Shown: positions 1,782 through 15,291 of the stretch, in pieces
How positions within the stretch are numbered: the stretch's first letter is position 1
Layout: every line of letters starts with the position of its first letter
Assembly (NCBI GenBank): GCA_016930435.1
Contig: JAFGGQ010000099.1
Location: forward strand, 1 to 19,203
From: a bacterium
Lineage (GTDB): Bacteria; UBP14; UBA6098; JAFGQG01
DNA length: 19,203 nt
Direction: 5' to 3'
Position numbers and translations under genes: made by a program
Notes under the pieces: model-generated
The model's input: only the letters and a program-made list of their open reading frames with translations
Database searches by the model: none
What the model was told of the DNA's origin: nothing

Positions 1782-4700
1782 TTAGTATAAGTGGATCTTC
1801 ACCATCACGGTTACCAATATCTCAAGGGGAGTGACATAGATTGAAGATTCCGTGGGGGCATTGAACTGGAACCAAAGGTTCTCATTAGTGCCCGAAGATA
1901 GGTTTGTACCTCCCGGTCCGTAAATGCCATCATCCCCTTCGGTAGCCCACCTTAAACTTGCTCCGACAAGATCGCGAACCTGATGAAAGGATGTCGGCGG
2001 CACCCCGAAATCGTTAAAGATAGCCTTCAATACAAATTGATCCTCACTGGGCAGGTAAGCCGCTGACCAGGCAACCGTATCACCGGTCAAGGTATCGATA
2101 ACCGTATCGAACCGCAAACCCAGATCCACCGGTAAAACCGTTTCATTGGAGATGACGACGACCTCCCGATCCTCCATGGTAACCGTCTCGAACAGACCTA
2201 TAAGGCCGATATCCCACCAGTCATGGTCCAGACTGATCTCCAGGGTGACCGGGTTATACAGCGCTACATAAGTAGTACATCTATTCAGTGGATCGATGGT
2301 CCGGTATGCAGGATCCCGGGAATCGGTCCATTCATAGAACTCCCAGGCTTCAAATTCCCCCACATCATACTGACTGACCTCCACATTATAAACCGATCCT
2401 TCGAAACCCCAAAAACTAATCTCGGATACATTATTATAGGCTGAACCCCCCACAGAAATCCAACCCAAACTCTCGGCGGGAGCCTTGGCGATGGTAATCA
2501 GATACTGCTTCTGATAAGTTGCTGTAAAGTTCCGTGGACTCCTGATCGGGCCTACCATCCGCATAGACACCGGGCTGCTGTCCTCCCAGAATAGAAATTT
2601 ATAGCGTTCACAATCAGAGGTATCCACATAGTCCGGAGAACTGGTCCGAATAATATAGACACTGTCCTCTGCCAACCAGAAATCATGGCTCGCTGAAGCT
2701 GCGCCTTCAATATGAATAGTGTCCACCTCCAGCCAGCCGAACGGCTCCGGGGGTAATTTACTGACATTACAACGATACCTTGTACGATAATAAGCGGTAT
2801 AATCCGAGGGACCCAGAACCGGCGAGGTAGTGAAGGCCGGACTGGAAATGCTGTCGTCCCAGTGTAAAAAAGTGTACATGGTATCGCCTATAGAATCAGG
2901 ATCGCTGACCATTATTTCGTATGTGGAGTCCTTCCAAGCCCACATTATCAGGAAGAAAATTCCATCATGAACTGTACCATTCACCGAGATCCATCCCAGG
3001 TCCTGAAAAGGCTGCTTTTTTATGGTCATCCGATACTTGGCATTGTAGTATGCGGTATAAGTGGATGGCCCGGTAATGGGTCCTATATCCCGGTATGAAT
3101 TGACATCGGCATTCTCCCATTCTTTAAACCGGTAAAACTCCCAAGCGGTAGTATCCCTGAAACTGACATCTACCTCATGATAACTCCCCTCTTCCCACCA
3201 GAAGGAGCGTTCTGCGGATTCCTCCCGGAACCAGCGGGTTCGATCCACTTCCAGCCAACCAAGGGTTTCCGGCGGGTCCTTCTGAATCGTGCAAAAAAAC
3301 ATACGGTCATAGAATGCTGTGAAAACAGTATCCCCGAAAACCGGCCCTACGGTAATAGTTGCCGTAGTGTCCCCGATATCCCAATGCGAAAAATTAAACA
3401 TCACAAGCGCGGTTGAATCATGGGTGCTTACACCGATCGTATGTATGCTCCCTTCTCTCCAGGCTACGGTTACATTAGACACACCGGCGATAGGTACCCC
3501 ATCGACTACGATATTTCCGGCAGTATGAGCTGGATCCTTATAAATAGTGCAGAGTACCTGCTGCATATATTCGGCATCGATGCTACATGAGTTAGCTACA
3601 AGTACTGAGGTACTGGCATCGGTGGAATCCAGAATGGGCAGCCCGGAATGCCAGAATGCAAAGGTGTAATCCCATTCCGGACCAGGAACCGTAGATTGGG
3701 TAACGATCGAAGCCCAGGTTCCCTCTTCATACCAGCCTTCACCTATCTGCCAGGGGACCAGGCTGTCCGTGCGTGAATATGTTAAAGAGATATAATATTC
3801 GGTGAACCATAACCAGGTGAGCGTGGAATTCTCCTCAATTATGAAGCTGACTATTGATGAATCACCGATTGACGGGATAGAGCCTGACCCGCTCCATCCC
3901 AGGCATACATGCCGTTCTCCGGGCAGGATAATGCTATCATTGACCCAGGCGGTTATCGGTGTTCCCGGCGCATAGTAATAGAGCCCCTCAGGGGGGTCCG
4001 GAACACCATATTCGGATACAACCTCCAGTTGAAGCACTTCACTCTCCCCTATCCAAACCCATTCAACGCCGGAAATCCGGTCAATAATAAAGTCGAAACT
4101 AAGCTCATAAGCGCTATCAAGAGCCCCCCAGCCTTGATAACCAAAACAATACATGGTGTCATCAACACCCACATTGCTTCCGGTCACCTCAGCTCCCGTC
4201 TCATACCAGTGAATACCCTCACCAGGATCTGGAAGGCCCCAACCCCCTGGATTTAATACAATAAACGGATACCTTTCAATTTCATCCCATAACCAGAGCA
4301 TTACGCTATTTTCGGTGATAACGAAACCGAGCTCATTACTGCTTCCTGTCGGGGGTACGGAACCGTACCCCAACCACCCGGTGCAATAATGCCACAAGGA
4401 GTCCGTAAAAACGGAGTCCTGTATATAAGCATAAACATTTGTCCCAATGGGGTAGATCAGCGTTCCTTCCGGATGGGGTGATCCAAATGGTGAATATACA
4501 ACGAGTTCAACCACTCCGCCTGCGCCGGACGACCAGCGCCATTCCAGAATTGTGGGCTCATTCAGGTTGAATTCAAACCAGTTTTCCGATGAACTGTCGG
4601 GAAGCGAACCCCAGCCATAATAACCAATACAGTACATCGTATCATCGGGTGAAAGTGCGTAACCTTCAACCAGAGCGCCTTCATCATACCAGTGTATCCC

Positions 4701-7700
4701 TTCCGGGGGGACGATGGCTGACGGGCCGCCGGGATTGCTGACCATGAATGGGAAACGGATCAAACCGGCCCACTGCCAGACAATTACGCTGTTTTCGGTC
4801 AGTATAAAATCTACCAGGTTGGAATCCCCGTTCGGGGGCACTGAACCGTAACCAATCCAGCCGGTGCAATAATGCCATGTTCCCCCTTCGAAGACCGAAT
4901 CAGACACCCATGAGTAAATATTAGTGCCTTCAGGAAAATAATGGACGGTTTCCCCTGCTGGATGTGGATTTCCGTATTCCGAGTAAACGGTGAGACTAAC
5001 CACCCCGCCAGCCCCGGATTCCCAATGCCAGGTTATACTGGAGGGGCTAAAAATGAGGAAGTCAAATTCGGTTTCCGTTCCCGATGGTGCCGAGCCGGTA
5101 CCAGTATAACCCACACAATACATGGTGATATCCGGTGAATCCGCATGACCTGTAACACTGTCCCCGCTGCTGTACCAGTGAATTCCCTCGCCTGGGATCA
5201 CCGGACCATAGCCACCTTCACTGTGAATAATCAGGGGGAACTGAAGGAAAATATCCCATTGCCAGACAATAGACGTATTTTCAGTAATGGTAAAATTGAA
5301 ACTGGAGGTATCCCCAGCCGGGGGAGCGGAACCATCCGCCCACCAACCGGTGCAATACTGCCAGCGGCCATCTCCATACGCGGAATCATCCACATATACT
5401 ACTATATTCATTCCGGCTGGGAAAAGGGTAGTGTCTGAGGGATGGGGGTCTCCGTAACGTGAATATACTACTAATTGAACCATGCTGCTGGCTCCTACCC
5501 AGCGCCATTGAATAGAAGAAGGTTCCTCAAGCATGAAGTTAAAGTTGGTCTCAAAAGCGCTGTCCGGAGCCGAACCCGTACCATAATATCCGATACAGTA
5601 CATCGTATCATCCGGGGAGGTTACGAATCCTCCTATCGGACAGCCCGGTGAAAACCAGTGATCCCCCTCCCCGGGGACAGGGCTATCATAACCACCGGGA
5701 TTGAAAACCTGCAGCCGGTATTGATGGATATATTCCGCGGTAAGCGTAGTATCCCCGTAAGCAACCACAGTATCCACAATGCCGGCATAGTCGCTCCAGG
5801 ATGTAAACTGGTACCGTTCCCCTTCGGAAAGATAGCAGAATGAATCAACTTCTATGATATGTTGGCTCCCCGGTGCCCAGGTTGCATTATATGGTGAGGG
5901 ATAAGCGATACCATCCACTGTAACAGAATCACCGCCAAAACTGGTCTGCACGGTTACATTGCTGTAAGCAGCATATACGATAGTATCCCGGAAAGCGGAA
6001 AACACCGTCCAGGAAGTGGTATCCAGGGCTACCCGGGGAGGGCTGCTGAGCGTAGTATCGCTAAAGGTTAACTCGCTCCCCCTGTCGGTCCACTCATACC
6101 ATTCTCCGAATAATCCCCCCTCAAGATGGGAAGCTCCGAATTGAACGTGGTTAATGGTTTGAACCGGATGAGCGGCATCCGTACCCAATAAGGTAATATG
6201 GGGATAATATTGGTGGTAATAAGTGATGATGTAGGTTTCTCCTGGTGTATCCACGGTATAATTAAGGTCTTCGCCAGCCGCATTCTCCCGCCATCCCTGG
6301 AATGAGGTAGTAGCCTGAGTGTAGCCGCTGACAGTCAGGTTACTTCCGCTATCCAGCCAGCGTGTCCAGGTTTCGTAGAAGAATTCCGGAGCGCTTGCGC
6401 CAAAGACCTGCCGGGTAACAACTGCCTGGTTGGTATCATTCAAGGCCAGCCCACCCGGAGCAACCTGCGGTTCAATGGTAATCTGGTACTGTTCGGTATA
6501 ATCCACATAAAAGGTATCCGCGCCGCTGACGGTCCATGAGGTGGAATCCTGGGTGGCATATCTGACATTGGAAGCGCCGGGCACGGGTTGCTCTATGGAA
6601 ACCACGGTCCCCACCTGGCAGGAATCTTCCCAGGTTCCAAAAGTGCTGGCTGTTTGAGGTCCGCTGTCATCCACATAATTTATCTGGGCAGGATACGATG
6701 CGTTCAGGCCGCTGGTTACTATGGTAATGGGCATCAGTTGTTGAAAGCGCCATGTAACTGTCCAATCCTGAAGGTATGGTGAACCCCCCACATCTGAAAA
6801 ATCGCCCAGTATCCTGATTATTCCATAAGTAGCCGGATTCAGGGCATTCAGGTCAACCGGCGAAACATCCTGGTTGACCACCGTACTATTCTCCCAGCTA
6901 TCACCATCCCAGTACTGGATAGAATATTTTATATCCCCGGTAGTCTCGTTGTCGCTGAAAAGGAGTTCATCCCAACCCACGGAACCGAACACCCAGGAAT
7001 GATTAATCGTCTGAGAGACAATGGTTCCGGTTTCACTCCCGCTCTCGTAAGAGATCCCTGGAATAATGTATTTATGGTCAGATTGGCTCGCTCCGGTAGG
7101 AACATTGCTATCAAGGGTGTTATTGGAGCTTTGGTAATAACTGCCCACCCCATTCGGTGGATAACCGCTGCAGTTTGAGTTTTCATCCCGGTAAATCCGG
7201 TAAAAAGAACCGCTCGTAGGCGCAATCCCGACCCAGTAACTGGAACCAAGTGTAATTTCAAAGGGAGTGGTAACATCCGCACCGATCCATCCTACCGCAT
7301 CGGCGCCTGTAACCAATGCCTGAGAACCCGCTATCATTCCGTAACCGCTCCCGTTCTGATATAAGGCAATATGTATCTGATCTCCCGGGTCAATAGAAGC
7401 ATTTCCGTCGTAGATCCAGATCCTGGTAACCGTAACTGTACCGGAACCCGGAATGGTCCAGAGGCTGTAAAATTCGTAGTTTGCGCCATAAGTGTAATAA
7501 GCGTCCGCGCAAGAGGGGTCCACACCAGCAGTGCCGGATACTCCACCCTGCAACCTGACCTGGTCGCTCCCATAGGTCTCGGTGTCGGTCATAATATCCC
7601 TGTCGAATTGTTCATCGGTTGTCTGATGCCAGGCGAAATTTGAATAGCTATTGTCGATGGTGAAGCTGAATGAATCGGACCAGGGGCCGTAAGTACCGGA

Positions 7701-10037
7701 GAGGGTGCTGTAGGGAGCGACCCGCCACCAATAGGTCTGGCCATTGGTCAGGGCGCCCTCGCCCTGGCTGTTCACTACATAGGCGCACACCCCAGTACCT
7801 TCCGGTATTGGCGGAGCCGGAGTAAAACCGGCGGTATTGGTTCGGCTTTCAATTGTGGCAAGCGGTGATGAAAAATCAGCATCGTTGTCCCATTCTACCT
7901 TGAAATGAAAGCTTCCTCCGCCCGGATTATCGGGGACATCCCAAACCAGAGTAGGAGTGGGAGAACTGCCTGCCTGGCCAATCTTGGCATTGTCAAAGGG
8001 CCGGATCAGCGAAGCGGCTCCCATGCTTGCTACAGTGATAGTACATTGAAAAGCCTGGTAATTATGCTTTGAAACGGTGAGTATCAACTGCCCGGCAGTA
8101 GTTGGCTCAACATTTACCAGGGCATGACCTGATGCATTACTGTAAGCAACCCCCTGAGTATCACCCGCTTTGTAGCCGCATACCAGCGCATCCTGTATTG
8201 GAGCCATCGCCGAGGCAGTACTTACCGTTATATCCAAAGTCTGAGGGCCCGTATAGATGGAACTTGGATAATTCACTACCATTTCCTGCGGGATGGCGGT
8301 ATAAAGATCGAATGTGGGATCACCGAGAATATTGTACATTTCATAGTAGCGGTGGGTATATCCACCCCCGCCATAAGCATTGTAAAGCTGAAGTTTGGCA
8401 TAATCACACATCCCGGAGAGCCATGTGATATGCTGTGAGAATACTCCATCAAAGAAGCGTCGCTGGAGAATATCGTCTTCATCCCAGAGGGATGTAACCG
8501 ATGAGCCCCAGAAATTAGCAGCGCCCTTGTTAGAAGCCCTGATCCAGGTCTCCCCGAAACATTCAGAGGAATGGGCTATATCACCGGTGAGGCAGGCATG
8601 ACTGCAGATTAGTGGATAGCGGTTCGAGTTGGTGAGTGAATTCACATTTGCCTGGGAGAAAGGAGGTCCTCCCCAGGCAGTTTCAGAACCATGTCCGGTA
8701 TAGACAGCTATGGTCCGGCCATTGTTGATCGCCGTGGCTACCGCGGTTCCGGAACCATAATAATAATAAAGGGAATCACAGGTCATTCCGGCAGACCGGC
8801 TTACTGAAATACAATAATTGTTAGTAGCCTCCGCAACGCCATGAAAGGAACCGTCATTGGAAGCCATAAAATAAGCGTTATCCAGAAAACCCGAACCTGA
8901 AGGATAATAATTGGTCTCGTAGCCAACTATCTTTGAAACTATAGCTTGGGTTTGGGCCAGACTATTAACGGAGAACCGGCCGATACCAACATCCGGGAAA
9001 TAATCACTACCCTCCAGGGTAGCATAATAGAGATCGGTAGGAGGATTATCGGCCTGGGTGCCGGTATGACAATTCACATACTCGACATCACCCACGATGA
9101 GGACAAATGATGGCGGGATAGTCCAGCTATCATAAGCATTCTGAATATAATTTTTAACCAAAGCAGTGGATGAACCCCCAATAGTAGCCGTGGTCGCCAA
9201 AGTTACATAATATCCCTTTTGGGTTTTCCATTCTACATAGGGCTGCATTCCAGGCTCAAAAGTGGTGGTGGTAATAATCAGTAGGCCTGCCGGGATATCG
9301 GGAACAGCCAATGGTTCAAATGCAGCGTAATTAATTACCGTCCGCTCAAGGAGATAATCGAAATAGGGATTGTAATATCGCTCCGGGATGATTTCAACCG
9401 GGCCAGAGGAAGACTTCTGGAAATCGATATTAAAGGTTATGCTGGTGAGCACTATTAATTTCTTCTGAACAGGGTTATATTTTATCGGGGCAATCTCCAG
9501 TCTGGCAAGGTGATGACCTCGCATGATTCCCCCTTTAGCCACACTGATAAAATCAGAAGGTGAATAATCATCATTGTTATAGGCCTTTTCGTCGATGATG
9601 AACTTTATATCCTTTTCGGCACCGGGAATTTTGGGAACTGAAGGCTGCAGGGGAAATACCCTTTCCGCCATTCCCAACTGGGATAAGGAGATCTGCTGAT
9701 ACTGAACAGATACTACCTGCCAATTCAACTCACATTCTGAGGGTATCTCCAGTAATTGCCGGTAAACGGGCAATCGGGGAGCACCCTGAGTAATACTGTA
9801 ACTGCAACCAGGGATTTCCGCCTCCAGAAAGGTACCCCCGGAAACAACAGTTTCCCTGTATTCGAACCCCCCGAAAAGAAGTTGCGCTGAAAACATCATC
9901 GGGGTGGAGTTAAGAATATCCAGAACCGGTTGGGAATTCGGCTGTCCTCCTTCAAGGGGATACCAGTCCGCGTTAACCAATAAGAACGCTCCCGCAATTA
10001 AAATGATGATCAAACCAAGATTTATTTTATTCCACAT
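1782..10037 (-). CDS. Giant secreted gingipain-type (peptidase C25) cysteine protease with long repeat stalk
   Basis: Exported protease of 2751 residues, about 300 kDa. Order of parts: signal peptide (1-23, hydrophobic core then VNA before DW); gingipain-type propeptide (about 60-235); C25 catalytic domain (about 250-578) with His449 in YTGHGSETAW and Cys482 in SHACLTGD, the expected His/Cys dyad; an Ig-like segment (580-672); an Fn3-like segment (about 675-798); a beta-rich stretch (about 800-1100). Then come about 18 modules of roughly 80 residues: four InlB-B-like (1102-1438), eight of two alternating types (1440-2078), one linking, and five C-terminal (2159-2595). The last 150 residues form a separate beta-sandwich-like end ending in NLWFQFNAP and a hydrophobic strand. 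I see no canonical type IX sorting tail. The ATG is preceded by GAGGAG (10043-10048) at five bases. The role is probably extracellular protein digestion or cell-surface adhesion; the substrate is unknown. Family assignment is firm, function inferred. Confidence 0.9.
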   Translation of the reverse strand: MWNKINLGLIIILIAGAFLLVNADWYPLEGGQPNSQPVLDILNSTPMMFSAQLLFGGFEYRETVVSGGTFLEAEIPGCSYSITQGAPRLPVYRQLLEIPSECELNWQVVSVQYQQISLSQLGMAERVFPLQPSVPKIPGAEKDIKFIIDEKAYNNDDYSPSDFISVAKGGIMRGHHLARLEIAPIKYNPVQKKLIVLTSITFNIDFQKSSSGPVEIIPERYYNPYFDYLLERTVINYAAFEPLAVPDIPAGLLIITTTTFEPGMQPYVEWKTQKGYYVTLATTATIGGSSTALVKNYIQNAYDSWTIPPSFVLIVGDVEYVNCHTGTQADNPPTDLYYATLEGSDYFPDVGIGRFSVNSLAQTQAIVSKIVGYETNYYPSGSGFLDNAYFMASNDGSFHGVAEATNNYCISVSRSAGMTCDSLYYYYGSGTAVATAINNGRTIAVYTGHGSETAWGGPPFSQANVNSLTNSNRYPLICSHACLTGDIAHSSECFGETWIRASNKGAANFWGSSVTSLWDEDDILQRRFFDGVFSQHITWLSGMCDYAKLQLYNAYGGGGYTHRYYEMYNILGDPTFDLYTAIPQEMVVNYPSSIYTGPQTLDITVSTASAMAPIQDALVCGYKAGDTQGVAYSNASGHALVNVEPTTAGQLILTVSKHNYQAFQCTITVASMGAASLIRPFDNAKIGQAGSSPTPTLVWDVPDNPGGGSFHFKVEWDNDADFSSPLATIESRTNTAGFTPAPPIPEGTGVCAYVVNSQGEGALTNGQTYWWRVAPYSTLSGTYGPWSDSFSFTIDNSYSNFAWHQTTDEQFDRDIMTDTETYGSDQVRLQGGVSGTAGVDPSCADAYYTYGANYEFYSLWTIPGSGTVTVTRIWIYDGNASIDPGDQIHIALYQNGSGYGMIAGSQALVTGADAVGWIGADVTTPFEITLGSSYWVGIAPTSGSFYRIYRDENSNCSGYPPNGVGSYYQSSNNTLDSNVPTGASQSDHKYIIPGISYESGSETGTIVSQTINHSWVFGSVGWDELLFSDNETTGDIKYSIQYWDGDSWENSTVVNQDVSPVDLNALNPATYGIIRILGDFSDVGGSPYLQDWTVTWRFQQLMPITIVTSGLNASYPAQINYVDDSGPQTASTFGTWEDSCQVGTVVSIEQPVPGASNVRYATQDSTSWTVSGADTFYVDYTEQYQITIEPQVAPGGLALNDTNQAVVTRQVFGASAPEFFYETWTRWLDSGSNLTVSGYTQATTSFQGWRENAAGEDLNYTVDTPGETYIITYYHQYYPHITLLGTDAAHPVQTINHVQFGASHLEGGLFGEWYEWTDRGSELTFSDTTLSSPPRVALDTTSWTVFSAFRDTIVYAAYSNVTVQTSFGGDSVTVDGIAYPSPYNATWAPGSQHIIEVDSFCYLSEGERYQFTSWSDYAGIVDTVVAYGDTTLTAEYIHQYRLQVFNPGGYDSPVPGEGDHWFSPGCPIGGFVTSPDDTMYCIGYYGTGSAPDSAFETNFNFMLEEPSSIQWRWVGASSMVQLVVYSRYGDPHPSDTTLFPAGMNIVVYVDDSAYGDGRWQYCTGWWADGSAPPAGDTSSFNFTITENTSIVWQWDIFLQFPLIIHSEGGYGPVIPGEGIHWYSSGDSVTGHADSPDITMYCVGYTGTGSAPSGTETEFDFLIFSPSSITWHWESGAGGVVSLTVYSEYGNPHPAGETVHYFPEGTNIYSWVSDSVFEGGTWHYCTGWIGYGSVPPNGDSNLVDFILTENSVIVWQWAGLIRFPFMVSNPGGPSAIVPPEGIHWYDEGALVEGYALSPDDTMYCIGYYGWGSLPDSSSENWFEFNLNEPTILEWRWSSGAGGVVELVVYSPFGSPHPEGTLIYPIGTNVYAYIQDSVFTDSLWHYCTGWLGYGSVPPTGSSNELGFVITENSVMLWLWDEIERYPFIVLNPGGWGLPDPGEGIHWYETGAEVTGSNVGVDDTMYCFGYQGWGALDSAYELSFDFIIDRISGVEWVWIGESEVLQLEVVSEYGVPDPPEGLYYYAPGTPITAWVNDSIILPGERHVCLGWSGSGSIPSIGDSSIVSFIIEENSTLTWLWFTEYYISLTYSRTDSLVPWQIGEGWYEEGTWASIVTQSTVPGPEWDYTFAFWHSGLPILDSTDASTSVLVANSCSIDAEYMQQVLCTIYKDPAHTAGNIVVDGVPIAGVSNVTVAWREGSIHTIGVSTHDSTALVMFNFSHWDIGDTTATITVGPVFGDTVFTAFYDRMFFCTIQKDPPETLGWLEVDRTRWFREESAERSFWWEEGSYHEVDVSFRDTTAWEFYRFKEWENADVNSYRDIGPITGPSTYTAYYNAKYRMTIKKQPFQDLGWISVNGTVHDGIFFLIMWAWKDSTYEIMVSDPDSIGDTMYTFLHWDDSISSPAFTTSPVLGPSDYTAYYRTRYRCNVSKLPPEPFGWLEVDTIHIEGAASASHDFWLAEDSVYIIRTSSPDYVDTSDCERYKFLFWEDSSPVSMRMVGPIRSPRNFTATYQKQYLITIAKAPAESLGWISVGGSAYNNVSEISFWGFEGSVYNVEVSQYDVGEFEAWEFYEWTDSRDPAYRTIDPLNRCTTYVALYNPVTLEISLDHDWWDIGLIGLFETVTMEDREVVVISNETVLPVDLGLRFDTVIDTLTGDTVAWSAAYLPSEDQFVLKAIFNDFGVPPTSFHQVRDLVGASLRWATEGDDGIYGPGGTNLSSGTNENLWFQFNAPTESSIYVTPLEILVTVMVKIHLY
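2253..3563 (-). repeat. Five C-terminal ~87-residue stalk modules of the C25 protease
   Basis: Residues about 2159-2595 contain five units. Each opens with (C/M/L)TI.K.P...LGW(L/I)(E/S)V, continues with FWW.EGS.Y.V.VS and Y.F..W.D, and closes with GP...P..YTA.Y. The pattern W.D...........(F/Y)TA.Y followed by a new beta strand is typical of InlB-B-like or Listeria-Bacteroides-type repeats in bacterial surface proteins, so a rod-like spacer is likely. The units differ too much in DNA to be a recent expansion. Confidence 0.75.
3805..5722 (-). repeat. Eight alternating ~80-residue modules (four A-B pairs) inside the C25 protease
   Basis: Residues about 1440-2078 consist of four pairs of related modules, period about 160 residues (about 480 bp). 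Type A modules carry NPGG, PGEGIHWY, DDTMYCIGY and G.GS.PDS, and end in W.W. Type B modules carry VVYSEYG.PHP, P.GTN, WHYCTGW, GYGS.PP and TENS...WQW. Both contain one Cys-G-(Y/W) core and a closing Trp-X-Trp, so A and B are probably ancient duplicates of one fold. At the DNA level the pairs are still alike: near-identical stretches around ATACAGTACATCGTATCATC occur near 4628 and 5594, two periods apart. The fold resembles divergent InlB B-repeat stalk modules, by inference. Confidence 0.8.
5723..6734 (-). repeat. Four InlB-B-like modules, first part of the stalk of the C25 protease
   Basis: Residues about 1102-1438 hold four divergent modules of about 84 residues. Each begins with a strand such as MPITIV, QYQITIEP, YYPHITLL or NVTVQTSF, and ends with a Trp-containing strand and DT..V.Y. 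They look like a more diverged set than the alternating A/B pairs that follow in the protein. Borders are approximate because they were read by eye. Confidence 0.6.
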
Positions 10038-10481: not shown

Positions 10482-11417
10482 TTATTTCAGCAGTTCATCC
10501 ATTCCTTTTTTAAGTCCCTTCTCAAGCTCGCTGATCTCGCTCTTATACTTATTAATTGCCAGAAATTTCTGCTTGTACAAAGCCTGTACCTTGGCTTCTT
10601 CCCCTTCGGTCAGCAGGGGTATTTCCAGTTTCATCAGTTCGGAGGGATGGATCAACAATATAAATCGCCCGTGCTTAAGCATTTCCAGTTGCCTTCTGCC
10701 AAGGTGCGTATATTCCAGGTAAAGCTTAAGAAATTCCGGAGATACTACTCTATCGGTATAGATCAACTTTGCCACACTACGGTCGTAGATTGCCCCCTCA
10801 AGCTCACTGTCAGCTATCAGTATCTTTGTGCCGAACCTTGTACCGCCCCTCAGGGGGATAAGTATATCTCCCTTGTTGATGATGTGTTTTTTAGCTATAT
10901 AGCGTTCGTATTTCGGTTTGAGATAGCGGAAGAAATTCTCGAAATCTTCGAAGATGAGTCTCCGGTTAACCACGAGACGTTCTTTGGGCTCGGGAGTCAA
11001 CCATGACAGACGGATCTCCGGGCCCACTTCAATCCTGGCAAAATCACCAAGGGTCAAAAACTTCCGGTGCGGAATGGTCTCCTTCTCCTTCTCTACCTCC
11101 TGATGCTGCTTTTCCTTCTCCTTGAACAATTGTACTATCTCATCCAATTTAAGGCCGAATTTATTCAGGTCCCTAATCAGATTGATCTTGCTTACCGTCT
11201 CCTGACGGTCGAAATATTGATAACCGGAATCCCTGGTTACCTTTGGCTTGATCAATTTCTGCTCAACATAATAGAGAACCGTGACCGGATTCACACCGGT
11301 GTCCTTGGCTATAACCGATTTGGTTACCAGTTCCGGTTCATTTTTATGGGCCCTGTCCGTATCAGCATTGGGTTCCTTACCGGGTTCTCCCCTGTTGAGT
11401 ATCCGCCTTTTATTCAT
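10482..11417 (-). CDS. MerR-type HTH fused to a half-HsdS (type I restriction specificity) domain
   Basis: 311 residues. After a polar, charged N-terminus, residues about 30-100 form a MerR-type winged HTH: KSVIAKDTGVNPVTVLYYVE, then KLIKPKVTRDSGYQYFD, a helix LIRDLNKFGLKLDEIVQLF and a Lys/Glu-rich coiled linker to about 116. Residues about 118-270 resemble one target recognition domain of a type I specificity subunit: LTLGDFARIEVGPEIRLSWL at the start, KKHIINKGDILIPLRGGT, IADSELEGAIYDRSVAKLIY, SPEFLKLYLEY and KLEIPLLTEGEEAKVQ. Residues 275-311 are a charged helix (KFLAINKYKSEISELEKGLKKGMDELL) like the conserved coiled-coil spacer of HsdS. It has half the usual HsdS length, so a dimer would be needed for a bipartite site. 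The ATG lies one base after the stop of the ClpX-like gene, with a strong ribosome binding site inside that gene. No HsdM or HsdR is present. Likely a DNA-binding regulator; the target is unknown. Confidence 0.8.
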   Translation of the reverse strand: MNKRRILNRGEPGKEPNADTDRAHKNEPELVTKSVIAKDTGVNPVTVLYYVEQKLIKPKVTRDSGYQYFDRQETVSKINLIRDLNKFGLKLDEIVQLFKEKEKQHQEVEKEKETIPHRKFLTLGDFARIEVGPEIRLSWLTPEPKERLVVNRRLIFEDFENFFRYLKPKYERYIAKKHIINKGDILIPLRGGTRFGTKILIADSELEGAIYDRSVAKLIYTDRVVSPEFLKLYLEYTHLGRRQLEMLKHGRFILLIHPSELMKLEIPLLTEGEEAKVQALYKQKFLAINKYKSEISELEKGLKKGMDELLK

Positions 11418-11430
11418 CTTAATATCCTCC
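11415..11430 (-). promoter_or_regulatory. Ribosome binding site of the HsdS-like gene, coded in the last codons of the ClpX-like gene
   Basis: On the minus strand the end of the ClpX-like gene reads AAA GGA GGA TAT TAA, then one base, then ATG of the next gene. The AAAGGAGG sequence is a near-perfect Shine-Dalgarno site with suitable spacing. It also codes the C-terminal Lys-Gly-Gly, so the two genes are expected to be translated in a coupled way. Confidence 0.85.
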
Positions 11431-12951
11431 TTTTGCCTTACTTGAAATATTATTGGAACAGTATTTTAGTCCATTATTCTTAGTTCTTTTCCCGTCATTA
11501 TTTTCTGACAGATATTCCAGATCGATGACCAGTCTTTTAGGCTTGATTCTATAAGCACCCTTGAAGAATTCGGGATAAATGATATCGTTAATGACCCTTC
11601 TTAATGCACGGGCGCCGGTATTATAGAGGCTTGCCTGAATTGCAATGTACTCCAGGGCTTCTTCGGTAAACTCCAGCTGCAGGTTATATGATTCCGCAAG
11701 TTTCTGATATTCACTGATCACCGGGCAGTGGGGATTGGTCAGAATGGCTTTCAGATTATCCGTTGACAACCTGTTAAACTGAAGTATCATGCCAAATCTT
11801 CCCAGAAACTCAGGGATTATCCCATAATTGACAAGATCAGCAGTAGTGAACCTAACCCCGGAATGTGATGTATCATCATGACATTCATAACCAATCCTGG
11901 ATTTTTGCTTATTATCGCCAATTAGGCTCATGTCGGAGAATGCTCCACCTGCGATGAACAGAATCCTGGAAGTATCCACCACTTTTCCGGGATAGCGGGA
12001 ATTTGACCATTGAGAATAATCACTCCTTTGCTTAGTGCCATCGATTATGGTTAACAGCTCTTCCTGAACACTTCTACCCGAAACATCCCTGTTGCTGAAA
12101 TGACCAAAATGCGAGGACTTACAGCCTATCTTGTCAATTTCATCAATATAAATAACCGCCTTTTCGGCAAGGTCAATGTTCCCCTTCGTCAGCTTATAGA
12201 GCTCAGGAATAATCTCATGAACATCCCGGCCAACATAACCGGTCTCCGAAAATTCATTGGCATCTAATATAAGGACCGGTATCCCCAAATAGCCTTCCAG
12301 TAATTTCAAGATATAGGTTTTTCCGCATCCGGTAGGTCCCACAAAAAACAGATTGCTCTTTTGCGGGGAGATTTCATCGCGGGTATTGCTCCTCAGGTAA
12401 TGATTAGCGAACTCCACTGAGACCATTTTCAGTACACTATCCTGACCAATCACATTTTTCTTTAAATAATTATAAATTCTATTGACCGAAATCGTCTCAG
12501 TCTTCCCCATTTCAGTCTTCGCCTTATTATGATTCAATTTTTCTTTGAATATCCCCCTATTTTCGAACAGTACCCATTCGATAACCTTTTCTGAAAGCCT
12601 AAAGCTGAATGCAAACCCTTTTTCTTTAACCAGGATACCGTTCTGAACCAGCGCACTATCATCGGCAAAGAATTTCAGAAAGAAGGCGTCTTCTTTATTG
12701 AATATATGCTTGAGTATCTTAATGATATCGGATATATGATTAGAATTACGGAAATAAGTCCAGCAGAACGCGATTTTCAATATTTCCAATTCATATTTAT
12801 TCAGGTCAAAATATTTTTTGATTTCAGAAATTCGTTCAAACAGCTTGTCATTGATTAAATCATCAAATTCTAGCTGATCATTTATATTGTGATTATTTGG
12901 ATTCACAATACCTTTATAGTACTTGTTAATTTCTTCAAAGTAGCTTTTCAC
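11419..12951 (-). CDS. ClpX-like AAA+ unfoldase with an atypical, zinc-finger-free N-terminal domain
   Basis: 510 residues. The AAA+ core (about 155-475) is of the ClpX type: IGQ near 168-170, Walker A GPTGCGKT (205-212), pore loop TGYVGRDV (GYVG at 238-241), Walker B VIYIDEIDKI (266-275), RDVSGRSVQEELL (288-300), DTSRILFIAGGAF (326-338), arginine finger in PEFLGRFG (Arg385) and sensor 2 in GARALRR (448). The ClpP-docking loop, IGF in E. coli ClpX, appears as IGY (353-355). The usual N-terminal Cys4 zinc domain is absent. Instead residues 25-135 form a helical region (FDLNKYELEILKIAF, GILVKEKGFAFSFRLSEKVIEWVL) that resembles the winged-helix N-domains of some other bacterial AAA+ proteins, by inference. 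The C-terminus has a polar Asn/Lys-rich tail of about 30 residues. The start is GTG, with GGAGG four bases upstream. It is the first gene of the operon with the HsdS-like protein. It is a paralogue, not the housekeeping ClpX. Confidence 0.88.
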   Translation of the reverse strand: MKSYFEEINKYYKGIVNPNNHNINDQLEFDDLINDKLFERISEIKKYFDLNKYELEILKIAFCWTYFRNSNHISDIIKILKHIFNKEDAFFLKFFADDSALVQNGILVKEKGFAFSFRLSEKVIEWVLFENRGIFKEKLNHNKAKTEMGKTETISVNRIYNYLKKNVIGQDSVLKMVSVEFANHYLRSNTRDEISPQKSNLFFVGPTGCGKTYILKLLEGYLGIPVLILDANEFSETGYVGRDVHEIIPELYKLTKGNIDLAEKAVIYIDEIDKIGCKSSHFGHFSNRDVSGRSVQEELLTIIDGTKQRSDYSQWSNSRYPGKVVDTSRILFIAGGAFSDMSLIGDNKQKSRIGYECHDDTSHSGVRFTTADLVNYGIIPEFLGRFGMILQFNRLSTDNLKAILTNPHCPVISEYQKLAESYNLQLEFTEEALEYIAIQASLYNTGARALRRVINDIIYPEFFKGAYRIKPKRLVIDLEYLSENNDGKRTKNNGLKYCSNNISSKAKGGY

Positions 12952-13019: not shown

Positions 13020-13052
13020 TTGACAATATATAGAGAGATCCTGATTTGTCAA
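13020..13052. promoter_or_regulatory. Dyad TTGACAA-N19-TTGTCAA overlapping the operon promoter, candidate operator
   Basis: A perfect 7-bp inverted repeat (13020-13026 and 13046-13052) with a 19-bp spacer brackets the predicted -35 and -10 elements. The right arm is the -35 box itself and the left arm touches the -10. Such an arrangement suits a dimeric repressor, plausibly the MerR-HsdS protein (autoregulation). That link is a guess. Confidence 0.35.
13025..13052 (-). promoter_or_regulatory. Predicted sigma-70-like promoter of the ClpX-like/HsdS-like operon
   Basis: Read on the minus strand, TTGACA (13052-13047) is followed after 16 bases by TATATT (13030-13025). This gives a perfect -35 and a five-of-six -10. 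Transcription would start near 13018, leaving a leader of about 65 bases before the GTG start of the ClpX-like gene. No experimental support. Confidence 0.5.
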
Positions 13053-13824: not shown

Positions 13825-15291
13825 ATGAAATCGAATGATAGCAACTTGAATATAAAAATCGAGAAGACGGGAAATAAAAGGATAATCTCACTGCAGATAG
13901 AGGAGATTCCCGGGATATCAGAGCCCCTGTCCGCTTATATCCGTTCTGAATTTAAAGATGGTTATCTTGTTTACATGAAGGCTTCGGGAGGCGAATTTAA
14001 AGATAATGCAGTATTTACTTTTGAAGTTTTATCCAGGGATATCCGCAGCAATCAGGAAATAGAACGATCATTAATGAATAAGCTCAATTACTTGATCGAG
14101 AATATCCACTTTGCCCAAAGGGTGATAGCCGCCTCGGACCTGCCCCGGCGTCTGGACCTTTTCCGTAATGTACTATTGCAGTTGTCATCTCTACCCTATG
14201 ATCCTGAATATATTCGGGTTGAATCGGAAAGGTTCTTTCTGCACAGGACTCCTGAATATCTGTATGACAGGGGACCGCATAACTTAGCCCGGGAGATAAT
14301 GCTTAACATCAAGATCGGAATAGAAGGATTACCGCAATCTTCGATTCCCTTTATCGAACTTTATAACAATACTGACTGCGCCGAACTAAACAGCGTTATT
14401 CACATAGCTACCAGGGATGTCGATGCCGGTTTTTTCCTGGATCAGATAAATAAATTCAGGGAATGTACAATAAGCTATGTCAAACAATTCTTTTTCAGGA
14501 AGCAACCCGATAATGTCCTGGTCATTCATATTGAGTTCAAGGGAAAAGAAGGCGAACAATTATCCGAAAACGAGCTTCAGGAACTCAAACATCAAATACT
14601 ATCGAATATACAAAAAAACTACTTGGTCGATTATACCCGGTTCGATGTTTACCTGAAGACTTATTACCCTCAATTTTTAAAAGAGGTAAGGGAATCGGGC
14701 AAGCCCCAGGCAATCTTTCTGCCGATCACATTTTCTCCAAAAACATTTTCCCTGTTCGCGTTATTCCCTGATAATTCTCAGGACCGCATAAAAGAGCTGT
14801 TAAATGATATGAGGATCAAACCCTATCTCGTTTCCATATCTTGGGAGATCTGCGCTTTCAATACTGTAGCCATCAAGCTTTACCTTTTAACTCCCAATGA
14901 AATGGCCTCGGAGGATCTTGATGATATTCTGGAGAATCACCATAATGTCCGGGTATTCGATCGTGGTTCCCGGGTTATCGCGACATCACTGCTCAAAGAG
15001 ATCCATAAAAATTTCCCGAGCCTGATCGCCTTCCCCAGTGCCAGGTTCCTGGTTGATCTTGCAACCCAGCAGGATAATCAGCTTCAGATATTCATGAGTA
15101 AGTTAAAGGAATTTATTGATAAAGAGAAAAAGCTCCAAAAGTATTCCCTTAAACGGTATGCAGTAGAATTAAAACGAATTTCCTCAGATCAGGCATTTCA
15201 GGAGATTGATACCCCGAAAACCGGCCAGTTCCATTTCTGCTTTCAAATCGACGAAAGGTGGTATATCAATATCAGAGTAAAGCAGAAATAA
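13825..15291 (+). CDS. Orphan cytoplasmic protein, 488 residues, function unknown
   Basis: I do not recognise a family. There is no signal peptide, membrane segment, P-loop, metal-binding Cys cluster or HTH. The sequence alternates short strands and charged helices. At least three stretches have the strand-helix-strand rhythm of small alpha/beta (ACT-like or ferredoxin-like) modules: about 15-95, about 225-280 (NVLVIHIEFKG then a helix and DYTRFDVYLK) and about 295-390. A helix-rich part follows (about 400-450) and the protein ends in strands (QFHFCFQIDERWYINIRVKQ). Such serial regulatory modules recall the N-terminus of large NAD-dependent glutamate dehydrogenases, but no catalytic domain follows and I do not claim homology. 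The start is ATG with AAGGGGA (13812-13818) six bases upstream. It is transcribed divergently from the ClpX-like/HsdS-like operon, so a shared control region is possible. Normal codon and amino-acid use indicates a real gene. Confidence 0.85.
   Translation: MKSNDSNLNIKIEKTGNKRIISLQIEEIPGISEPLSAYIRSEFKDGYLVYMKASGGEFKDNAVFTFEVLSRDIRSNQEIERSLMNKLNYLIENIHFAQRVIAASDLPRRLDLFRNVLLQLSSLPYDPEYIRVESERFFLHRTPEYLYDRGPHNLAREIMLNIKIGIEGLPQSSIPFIELYNNTDCAELNSVIHIATRDVDAGFFLDQINKFRECTISYVKQFFFRKQPDNVLVIHIEFKGKEGEQLSENELQELKHQILSNIQKNYLVDYTRFDVYLKTYYPQFLKEVRESGKPQAIFLPITFSPKTFSLFALFPDNSQDRIKELLNDMRIKPYLVSISWEICAFNTVAIKLYLLTPNEMASEDLDDILENHHNVRVFDRGSRVIATSLLKEIHKNFPSLIAFPSARFLVDLATQQDNQLQIFMSKLKEFIDKEKKLQKYSLKRYAVELKRISSDQAFQEIDTPKTGQFHFCFQIDERWYINIRVKQK

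What the first reader, a model, noticed from the sequence alone, without database searches (positions are those of the whole stretch)
10482..11417. MerR-type HTH fused to a half-length HsdS target-recognition domain
Seen: a clear MerR HTH (about residues 30-100) is joined by a charged helix to a segment with HsdS hallmarks (LGDFARIEVG start, KGDILI, SPEFLKLYLEY, LEIPLLTEGEEAKVQ and a terminal Lys/Glu coiled coil). Known: MerR proteins dimerise through a coiled coil and bind promoters; type I specificity subunits read bipartite sites with two recognition domains kept apart by coiled coils, and half-size versions act as dimers. Inference: a regulator with two independent DNA-reading modules per chain, able to bind a composite site. 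I know of no characterised protein with this fusion.
Basis: partly seen in the sequence, partly recalled or inferred. Interest (0 to 1): 0.82.

Follow-up and report, generated by a model that had tools for sequence, protein, structure and literature searches.

The report
MerR regulator fused to restriction-enzyme DNA reader
One bacterial gene joins the DNA-binding head of a MerR-type gene regulator to half of the DNA-reading subunit of a restriction-modification enzyme, sits directly behind a second ClpX-like protein-unfolding motor, and belongs to a genome with no detectable partner methylase, so a restriction-system DNA reader seems to have been reused for another job that is still untested.

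Summary
ORF 10482-11417(-), 311 aa, has a MerR HTH (residues ~30-104; Pfam MerR_1 E 7.4e-9, above its cut-off) and a C-terminal half of a type I specificity subunit: one target-recognition domain (TRD, 118-270) plus one conserved-region helix (271-311). The TRD core, tested without either coil, matches 15 PADLOC Specificity_I models and mad5 (best 1.4e-7). Shuffled copies match none. A TRD profile built without this protein aligns to it (hhalign 94.7%, E 6e-8) and itself finds solved HsdS structures. The nearest relatives of the TRD are TRDs at the ends of N6-adenine methyltransferases. I found no second MerR-TRD fusion, although the searches were not exhaustive. New here: the gene is the second of a tight pair (1-nt gap, AGGAGG) behind a second, divergent, zinc-finger-less ClpX-like AAA+ ATPase, private to this genome within its phylum sample. 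The genome shows no Methylase_S and no N6_Mtase hit, so this is not an ordinary specificity subunit. Most likely it is a dimeric DNA-bound regulator with two reading modules, remodelled by its ClpX-like partner. The anatomy is secure; the mechanism is inferred. AlphaFold failed (pLDDT 36-37), so the fold was not tested.

The parts
10482..11417 (-). MerR-TRD fusion gene, 311 aa
   Evidence: the ORF listing/translate; MerR and HsdS profiles
11106..11330 (-). MerR-type winged HTH and start of the dimerisation helix, residues 30-104
   Evidence: Pfam MerR_1 E 7.4e-9; CueR by sequence E 1e-5. Arg of the 'RYY' motif is Leu48 and the wing Arg is Gln67
11067..11147 (-). charged linker helix, residues 91-117, where the MerR coiled coil would lie
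   Evidence: helix 91-114 in the low-confidence model; sequence
10608..11066 (-). single HsdS-type target-recognition domain, residues 118-270
   Evidence: 16 PADLOC HsdS/mad5 models, shuffles none; hhalign 94.7% to TRD profile
10485..10607 (-). HsdS conserved-region-like long helix, residues 271-311
   Evidence: mad5 match runs to residue 305; helix 271-310, with the only well-predicted stretch of the model near the C-terminus
11426..11431 (-). AGGAGG ribosome-binding site of the fusion gene, inside the end of the upstream gene
   Evidence: sequence
11419..12951 (-). second, divergent ClpX-like AAA+ ATPase, 510 aa (GTG start), with a 150-aa N-terminus unlike ClpX; first gene of the pair
   Evidence: NCBIfam ClpX 277 bits, below the 359 cut-off; alignment with the genome's ordinary ClpX
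13025..13052 (-). sigma-70-like promoter TTGACA-16-TATATT upstream of the pair, overlapped by inverted repeat TTGACAA-N19-TTGTCAA (13020-13052)
   Evidence: promoter scan 11/12; exact repeat; inverted repeats as a group not above chance

Best explanation
The protein is a MerR-family DNA-binding protein whose usual effector domain has been replaced by half of a type I specificity subunit (one TRD and one conserved-region helix). It probably works as a homodimer held by the MerR helix and the C-terminal helix, so that two HTHs and two TRDs contact DNA, either at one composite site or at two sites it brings together. It is made from a two-gene operon with a specialised ClpX-like unfoldase. The most likely scheme is that the dimer sits at its site(s) as a regulator, including its own promoter, and the ClpX-like partner pulls it off or remodels it, or is brought to that DNA by it. 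Shown: the two domains, the gene pair, the intact ATPase motifs of the partner, and no detectable HsdM/HsdS genes. Inferred: dimerisation, DNA binding, the promoter as target, and physical contact with the ClpX-like protein.
For: Domain profiles and independent profile alignment. No Methylase_S or N6_Mtase hit in the own genome, with both searches ringing in control genomes. Gene pair with a 1-nt gap and AGGAGG. The ClpX-like partner keeps Walker A GPTGCGKT, Walker B, the GYVG pore loop and the GAR sensor-2 motif, has IGY in place of the ClpP-docking IGF, and lacks the zinc finger. It is additional to the normal ClpX at G000:C114, and each other phylum genome with a hit gave one match, at ordinary-ClpX identity. 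Literature precedents: half-HsdS can dimerise into a full reader, and the MerR-family protein BmrR was noted to resemble HsdS (PMC6158711); ClpXP acts on type I restriction complexes assembled on DNA (PMC12707154).
Against: No relative with the same domain pair was found, so conservation of the architecture and of the ClpX pairing cannot be tested. No fold was obtained (pLDDT 36-37). The two arginines usual in MerR helix 2 and wing are Leu48 and Gln67, so HTH-DNA contact may be altered. The promoter repeat is not significant as a class.
Confidence: 0.42

Rival explanations
1. A small defence or epigenetic-sensing module: the MerR-TRD protein recognises specific, perhaps unmethylated, DNA on incoming elements and directs the ClpX-like ATPase as effector.
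For: Best C-terminal matches are MAD5 of the MADS defence system, and the HTH weakly matches mad1. The gene pair is accessory. In another genome a half-HsdS lies next to MoxR AAA+ and VWA genes (L050, L051).
Against: The surroundings (SppA, C25 protease, PD40-OmpA, PAS-LuxR regulator) do not look like a defence island. No N6_Mtase hit, so MAD2 is missing. The MAD5 score is 35 bits against a cut-off of 400.
Confidence: 0.2
2. It is the specificity subunit of a methyltransferase encoded elsewhere in the cell, with an added HTH.
For: The TRD plus conserved-region layout is that of functional half-HsdS; its closest relatives belong to N6-methyltransferases.
Against: No N6_Mtase or Methylase_S hit in a genome estimated 90% complete. 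No such gene in the window.
Confidence: 0.12
3. The TRD no longer reads DNA and serves as a protein-binding or stabilising domain of a MerR regulator, or the whole gene is a decaying singleton.
For: Divergent copy: Pfam Methylase_S is silent, it carries extra loops against relatives, and no orthologue was found.
Against: Open frame with a strong ribosome site and intact TRD core motifs (GDILI, LKHG, IPLL) in alignment.
Confidence: 0.2
4. An assembly chimera joined two unrelated genes.
For: It is a singleton from a fragmented assembly of 180 contigs.
Against: The join is in frame, falls between domains inside a helix, and sits in continuous coding sequence without a step in composition.
Confidence: 0.04

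Closest known systems
MerR-family regulators with C-terminal effector domains (CueR, BmrR, Mta, EcmrR)
   Same: N-terminal MerR winged HTH followed by a long helix that dimerises in the family
   Different: The C-terminal domain is an HsdS TRD, not a ligand-binding domain; Leu48 and Gln67 replace common arginines
Type I R-M specificity subunit HsdS (EcoKI S, S.BsaXI) and half-HsdS
   Same: One TRD followed by one conserved-region helix, as in half-size HsdS
   Different: A MerR HTH at the N-terminus; no HsdM-type methyltransferase and no other HsdS detected in the genome
N6-adenine methyltransferase-TRD fusions (L003, L012, L019, L054, L055)
   Same: Closest TRD sequences found, 23-28% identity
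   Different: There the TRD is fused to the methyltransferase; here to an HTH
MADS defence system, MAD5 and MAD1
   Same: Best profile for the C-terminal half (MAD5) and a weak match of the HTH (MAD1)
   Different: Score far below the family cut-off; no MAD2-type methyltransferase; genes fused and next to a ClpX-like ATPase
ClpX (partner gene)
   Same: AAA+ core with Walker A/B, GYVG pore loop and GAR sensor 2
   Different: No zinc-binding domain, RKH loop replaced, IGY for IGF, own 150-aa N-terminus

Membership tests
MerR family | MerR winged-HTH profile above curated cut-off | tested here: met
   36 bits against 21.6
MerR family | Conserved arginines of helix 2 (RYY) and wing (GYR); common, not strictly invariant | tested here: not met
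   Leu48 and Gln67. Several other MerR proteins in the set also vary at the first position; the second is nearly always R/K
MerR family | Coiled-coil homodimer binding an operator between promoter elements | not testable with these tools
   AlphaFold failed; no binding data
Type I specificity subunit (HsdS) | TRD sequence similarity | tested here: met
Type I specificity subunit (HsdS) | Two TRDs and two conserved regions in one chain | tested here: not met
   One TRD and one conserved-region helix only; this is the half-HsdS layout
Type I specificity subunit (HsdS) | Partner HsdM (N6_Mtase) in the genome | tested here: not met
   No hit at E 0.01 in the own genome, about 90% complete; control genomes ring
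MADS defence system | MAD5 at curated cut-off and MAD2 methyltransferase present | tested here: not met
   35 bits against 400; no N6_Mtase
ClpX (partner gene) | AAA+ core motifs | tested here: met
   Alignment with genomic ClpX
ClpX (partner gene) | N-terminal zinc-binding domain and ClpX equivalog score | tested here: not met
   No Cys cluster; 277 bits against 359

The most novel reading that the evidence does not exclude
A restriction-system DNA reader has been recruited into a MerR regulator that is paired with a dedicated ClpX-like unfoldase, giving a two-gene switch in which sequence- or methylation-dependent DNA reading by a TRD controls transcription and the motor resets it.
Probability: 0.25. 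Interest if true: 0.8.

Novelty: new variant of a known kind. Interest (0 to 1): 0.52.

Why it matters
TRDs are known as the interchangeable address labels of restriction-modification enzymes. A TRD on a transcription-factor head, in a genome with no detectable partner methylase, would show that these readers can move into gene regulation. It would make testable the published suggestion that half-HsdS dimers and MerR-type dimers (BmrR) are alike (PMC6158711). A regulator that senses adenine methylation through a TRD, or is cleared by a dedicated ClpX, would be new as far as I know. The value is limited for now because it is a single example.

Tried and rejected
AlphaFold of the full protein (single sequence, pLDDT 37) and of the TRD with two relatives (pLDDT 36) both failed, so no fold search was run. 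Scans for close relatives in viral and genome contigs found no fusion; the last genome scan gave only methyltransferase-TRD proteins. Genome searches gave single-domain matches only: 17 genomes of the phylum, 386, 388 that overlap the former, 398 of another phylum, and two tiny phyla. The partner's N-terminal 150 residues have no convincing relative; L043 and L048 were not convincing on inspection. An HspR-like heat-shock reading (MerR protein at the end of a chaperone operon) was considered; the HspR profiles score only 17 bits, so it stays an analogy. No text on Esub1 (8vsq/8vsr) was found.

Full report
What is there. The minus-strand ORF 10482-11417 encodes 311 residues from an ATG preceded by AGGAGG at 8 nt. 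Residues 36-100 match Pfam MerR_1 at 36 bits, above its cut-off of 21.6, and CueR structures by sequence. Residues 105-305 match type I specificity subunits: NCBIfam MADS5 E 6.8e-9, PADLOC mad5 E 1e-9 and many Specificity_I models, best 2.3e-7.

Is the HsdS match real? Coiled coils can give false matches, so the TRD core 118-270 was tested without either coil: it still hits 15 Specificity_I models and mad5 (best 1.4e-7), while two shuffles of residues 118-311 hit none. Full-length relatives of the C-terminal half are N6-adenine methyltransferases with a C-terminal TRD (L003, L012, L013, L019, L054, L055). A profile of such TRDs plus two half-HsdS proteins, built without the window protein, aligns to it with hhalign probability 94.7% and E 6e-8 over 133 columns. 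The same profile finds EcoKI HsdS, the 1yf2 S subunit and S.BsaXI among solved structures. Pfam Methylase_S does not reach the window protein directly, so it is a divergent copy. AlphaFold gave no usable model for the full protein (pLDDT 37) or for the TRD with two relatives (pLDDT 36), so the fold itself is untested and no fold search was made.

Architecture. HsdS has TRD1-CR1-TRD2-CR2 (PMC12707154); here there is one TRD and one CR-like helix, the half-HsdS layout. Half-HsdS proteins can dimerise into a working reader (PMC6158711). The MerR head keeps the family signature, but two commonly conserved arginines are Leu48 and Gln67, so its DNA contacts may differ.

Neighbourhood. The gene follows a 510-aa ClpX-like ATPase with a 1-nt gap. 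The ATPase keeps Walker A and B, the GYVG pore loop and the GAR motif, has IGY where ClpX has the ClpP-docking IGF, lacks the zinc-binding domain and the RKH loop, and has its own N-terminus. The genome has an ordinary ClpX as well. Of 17 genomes of the phylum sample, only this one gave two matches; the others gave at most one, at the identity of ordinary ClpX. The pair is therefore accessory. A promoter-like TTGACA-16-TATATT lies upstream, within an exact TTGACAA-N19-TTGTCAA repeat, but inverted repeats in that region are no more frequent than in shuffles.

What it is not. The own genome shows no Methylase_S and no N6_Mtase hit, although both searches ring in control genomes. A specificity subunit of a resident type I enzyme is thus unlikely, with the caveat that the assembly is about 90% complete. 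It is not a MADS member by score (35 against 400 bits) or by gene content (no MAD2-type methyltransferase).

Uniqueness. No second MerR-TRD chain was found in the phylum, in two overlapping samples of 386 and 388 genomes, in 398 genomes of another phylum, in plasmids or phages, or in contig scans. Those scans rest on short peptides or on sampling and do not prove absence. Paper searches found no description of such a fusion.

How it may work. My best explanation (0.42) is a dimeric DNA-bound regulator whose TRD replaces the usual MerR effector domain, acting with and probably reset by the ClpX-like unfoldase. Precedents are the stated likeness between BmrR, a MerR-family protein, and HsdS (PMC6158711) and the action of ClpXP on DNA-assembled type I restriction enzymes (PMC12707154). 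Domain identity, gene pair, ATPase motifs and lack of detectable methylase genes are shown; dimerisation, DNA binding, target and contact with the ATPase are inferred.

Verdict. The function remains open. The example is single, so interest is moderate (0.52), rising to about 0.8 if the regulator-plus-motor scheme were shown.

Noticed in passing
L050 5576-6226 (-) and L051 2252-2962 (+), genome G045: A stand-alone half-HsdS (216-236 aa, Pfam Methylase_S E 1e-12) lies beside MoxR-type AAA+ and VWA genes with no methyltransferase recognised among the ORFs read; its best solved match is Esub1 (8vsr). Two copies in one genome. Another case of a TRD next to an AAA+ ATPase outside classic R-M.
   Followed up: partly
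window 1782-10037 (-): A 2751-aa gingipain-like C25 peptidase with propeptide and many repeated modules of the type 'GEGIHWY...'.
   Followed up: partly
window 13825-15291 (+): A 488-aa protein with no significant Pfam, NCBIfam, PADLOC or PHROGs match, divergent from the ClpX-like gene across an 870-nt AT-rich gap.
   Followed up: no
window 12505-12951 (-): The N-terminal 150 residues of the ClpX-like protein have no convincing relative in 386 genomes.
   Followed up: partly
L054 1478-3827 and L055 209-2400: An N6-methyltransferase-TRD gene is followed by a 181-217 aa protein ending in GTHCHLRNEFYE, probably a type II restriction enzyme without a family model (the L055 copy and the L004 homologue were scanned against NCBIfam).
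   Followed up: partly
G082:C105 16648-17481 (L009, L023, L026): Three short MerR-like HTH ORFs in tandem (85-88 aa), among the closest HTH relatives of the window protein.
   Followed up: no
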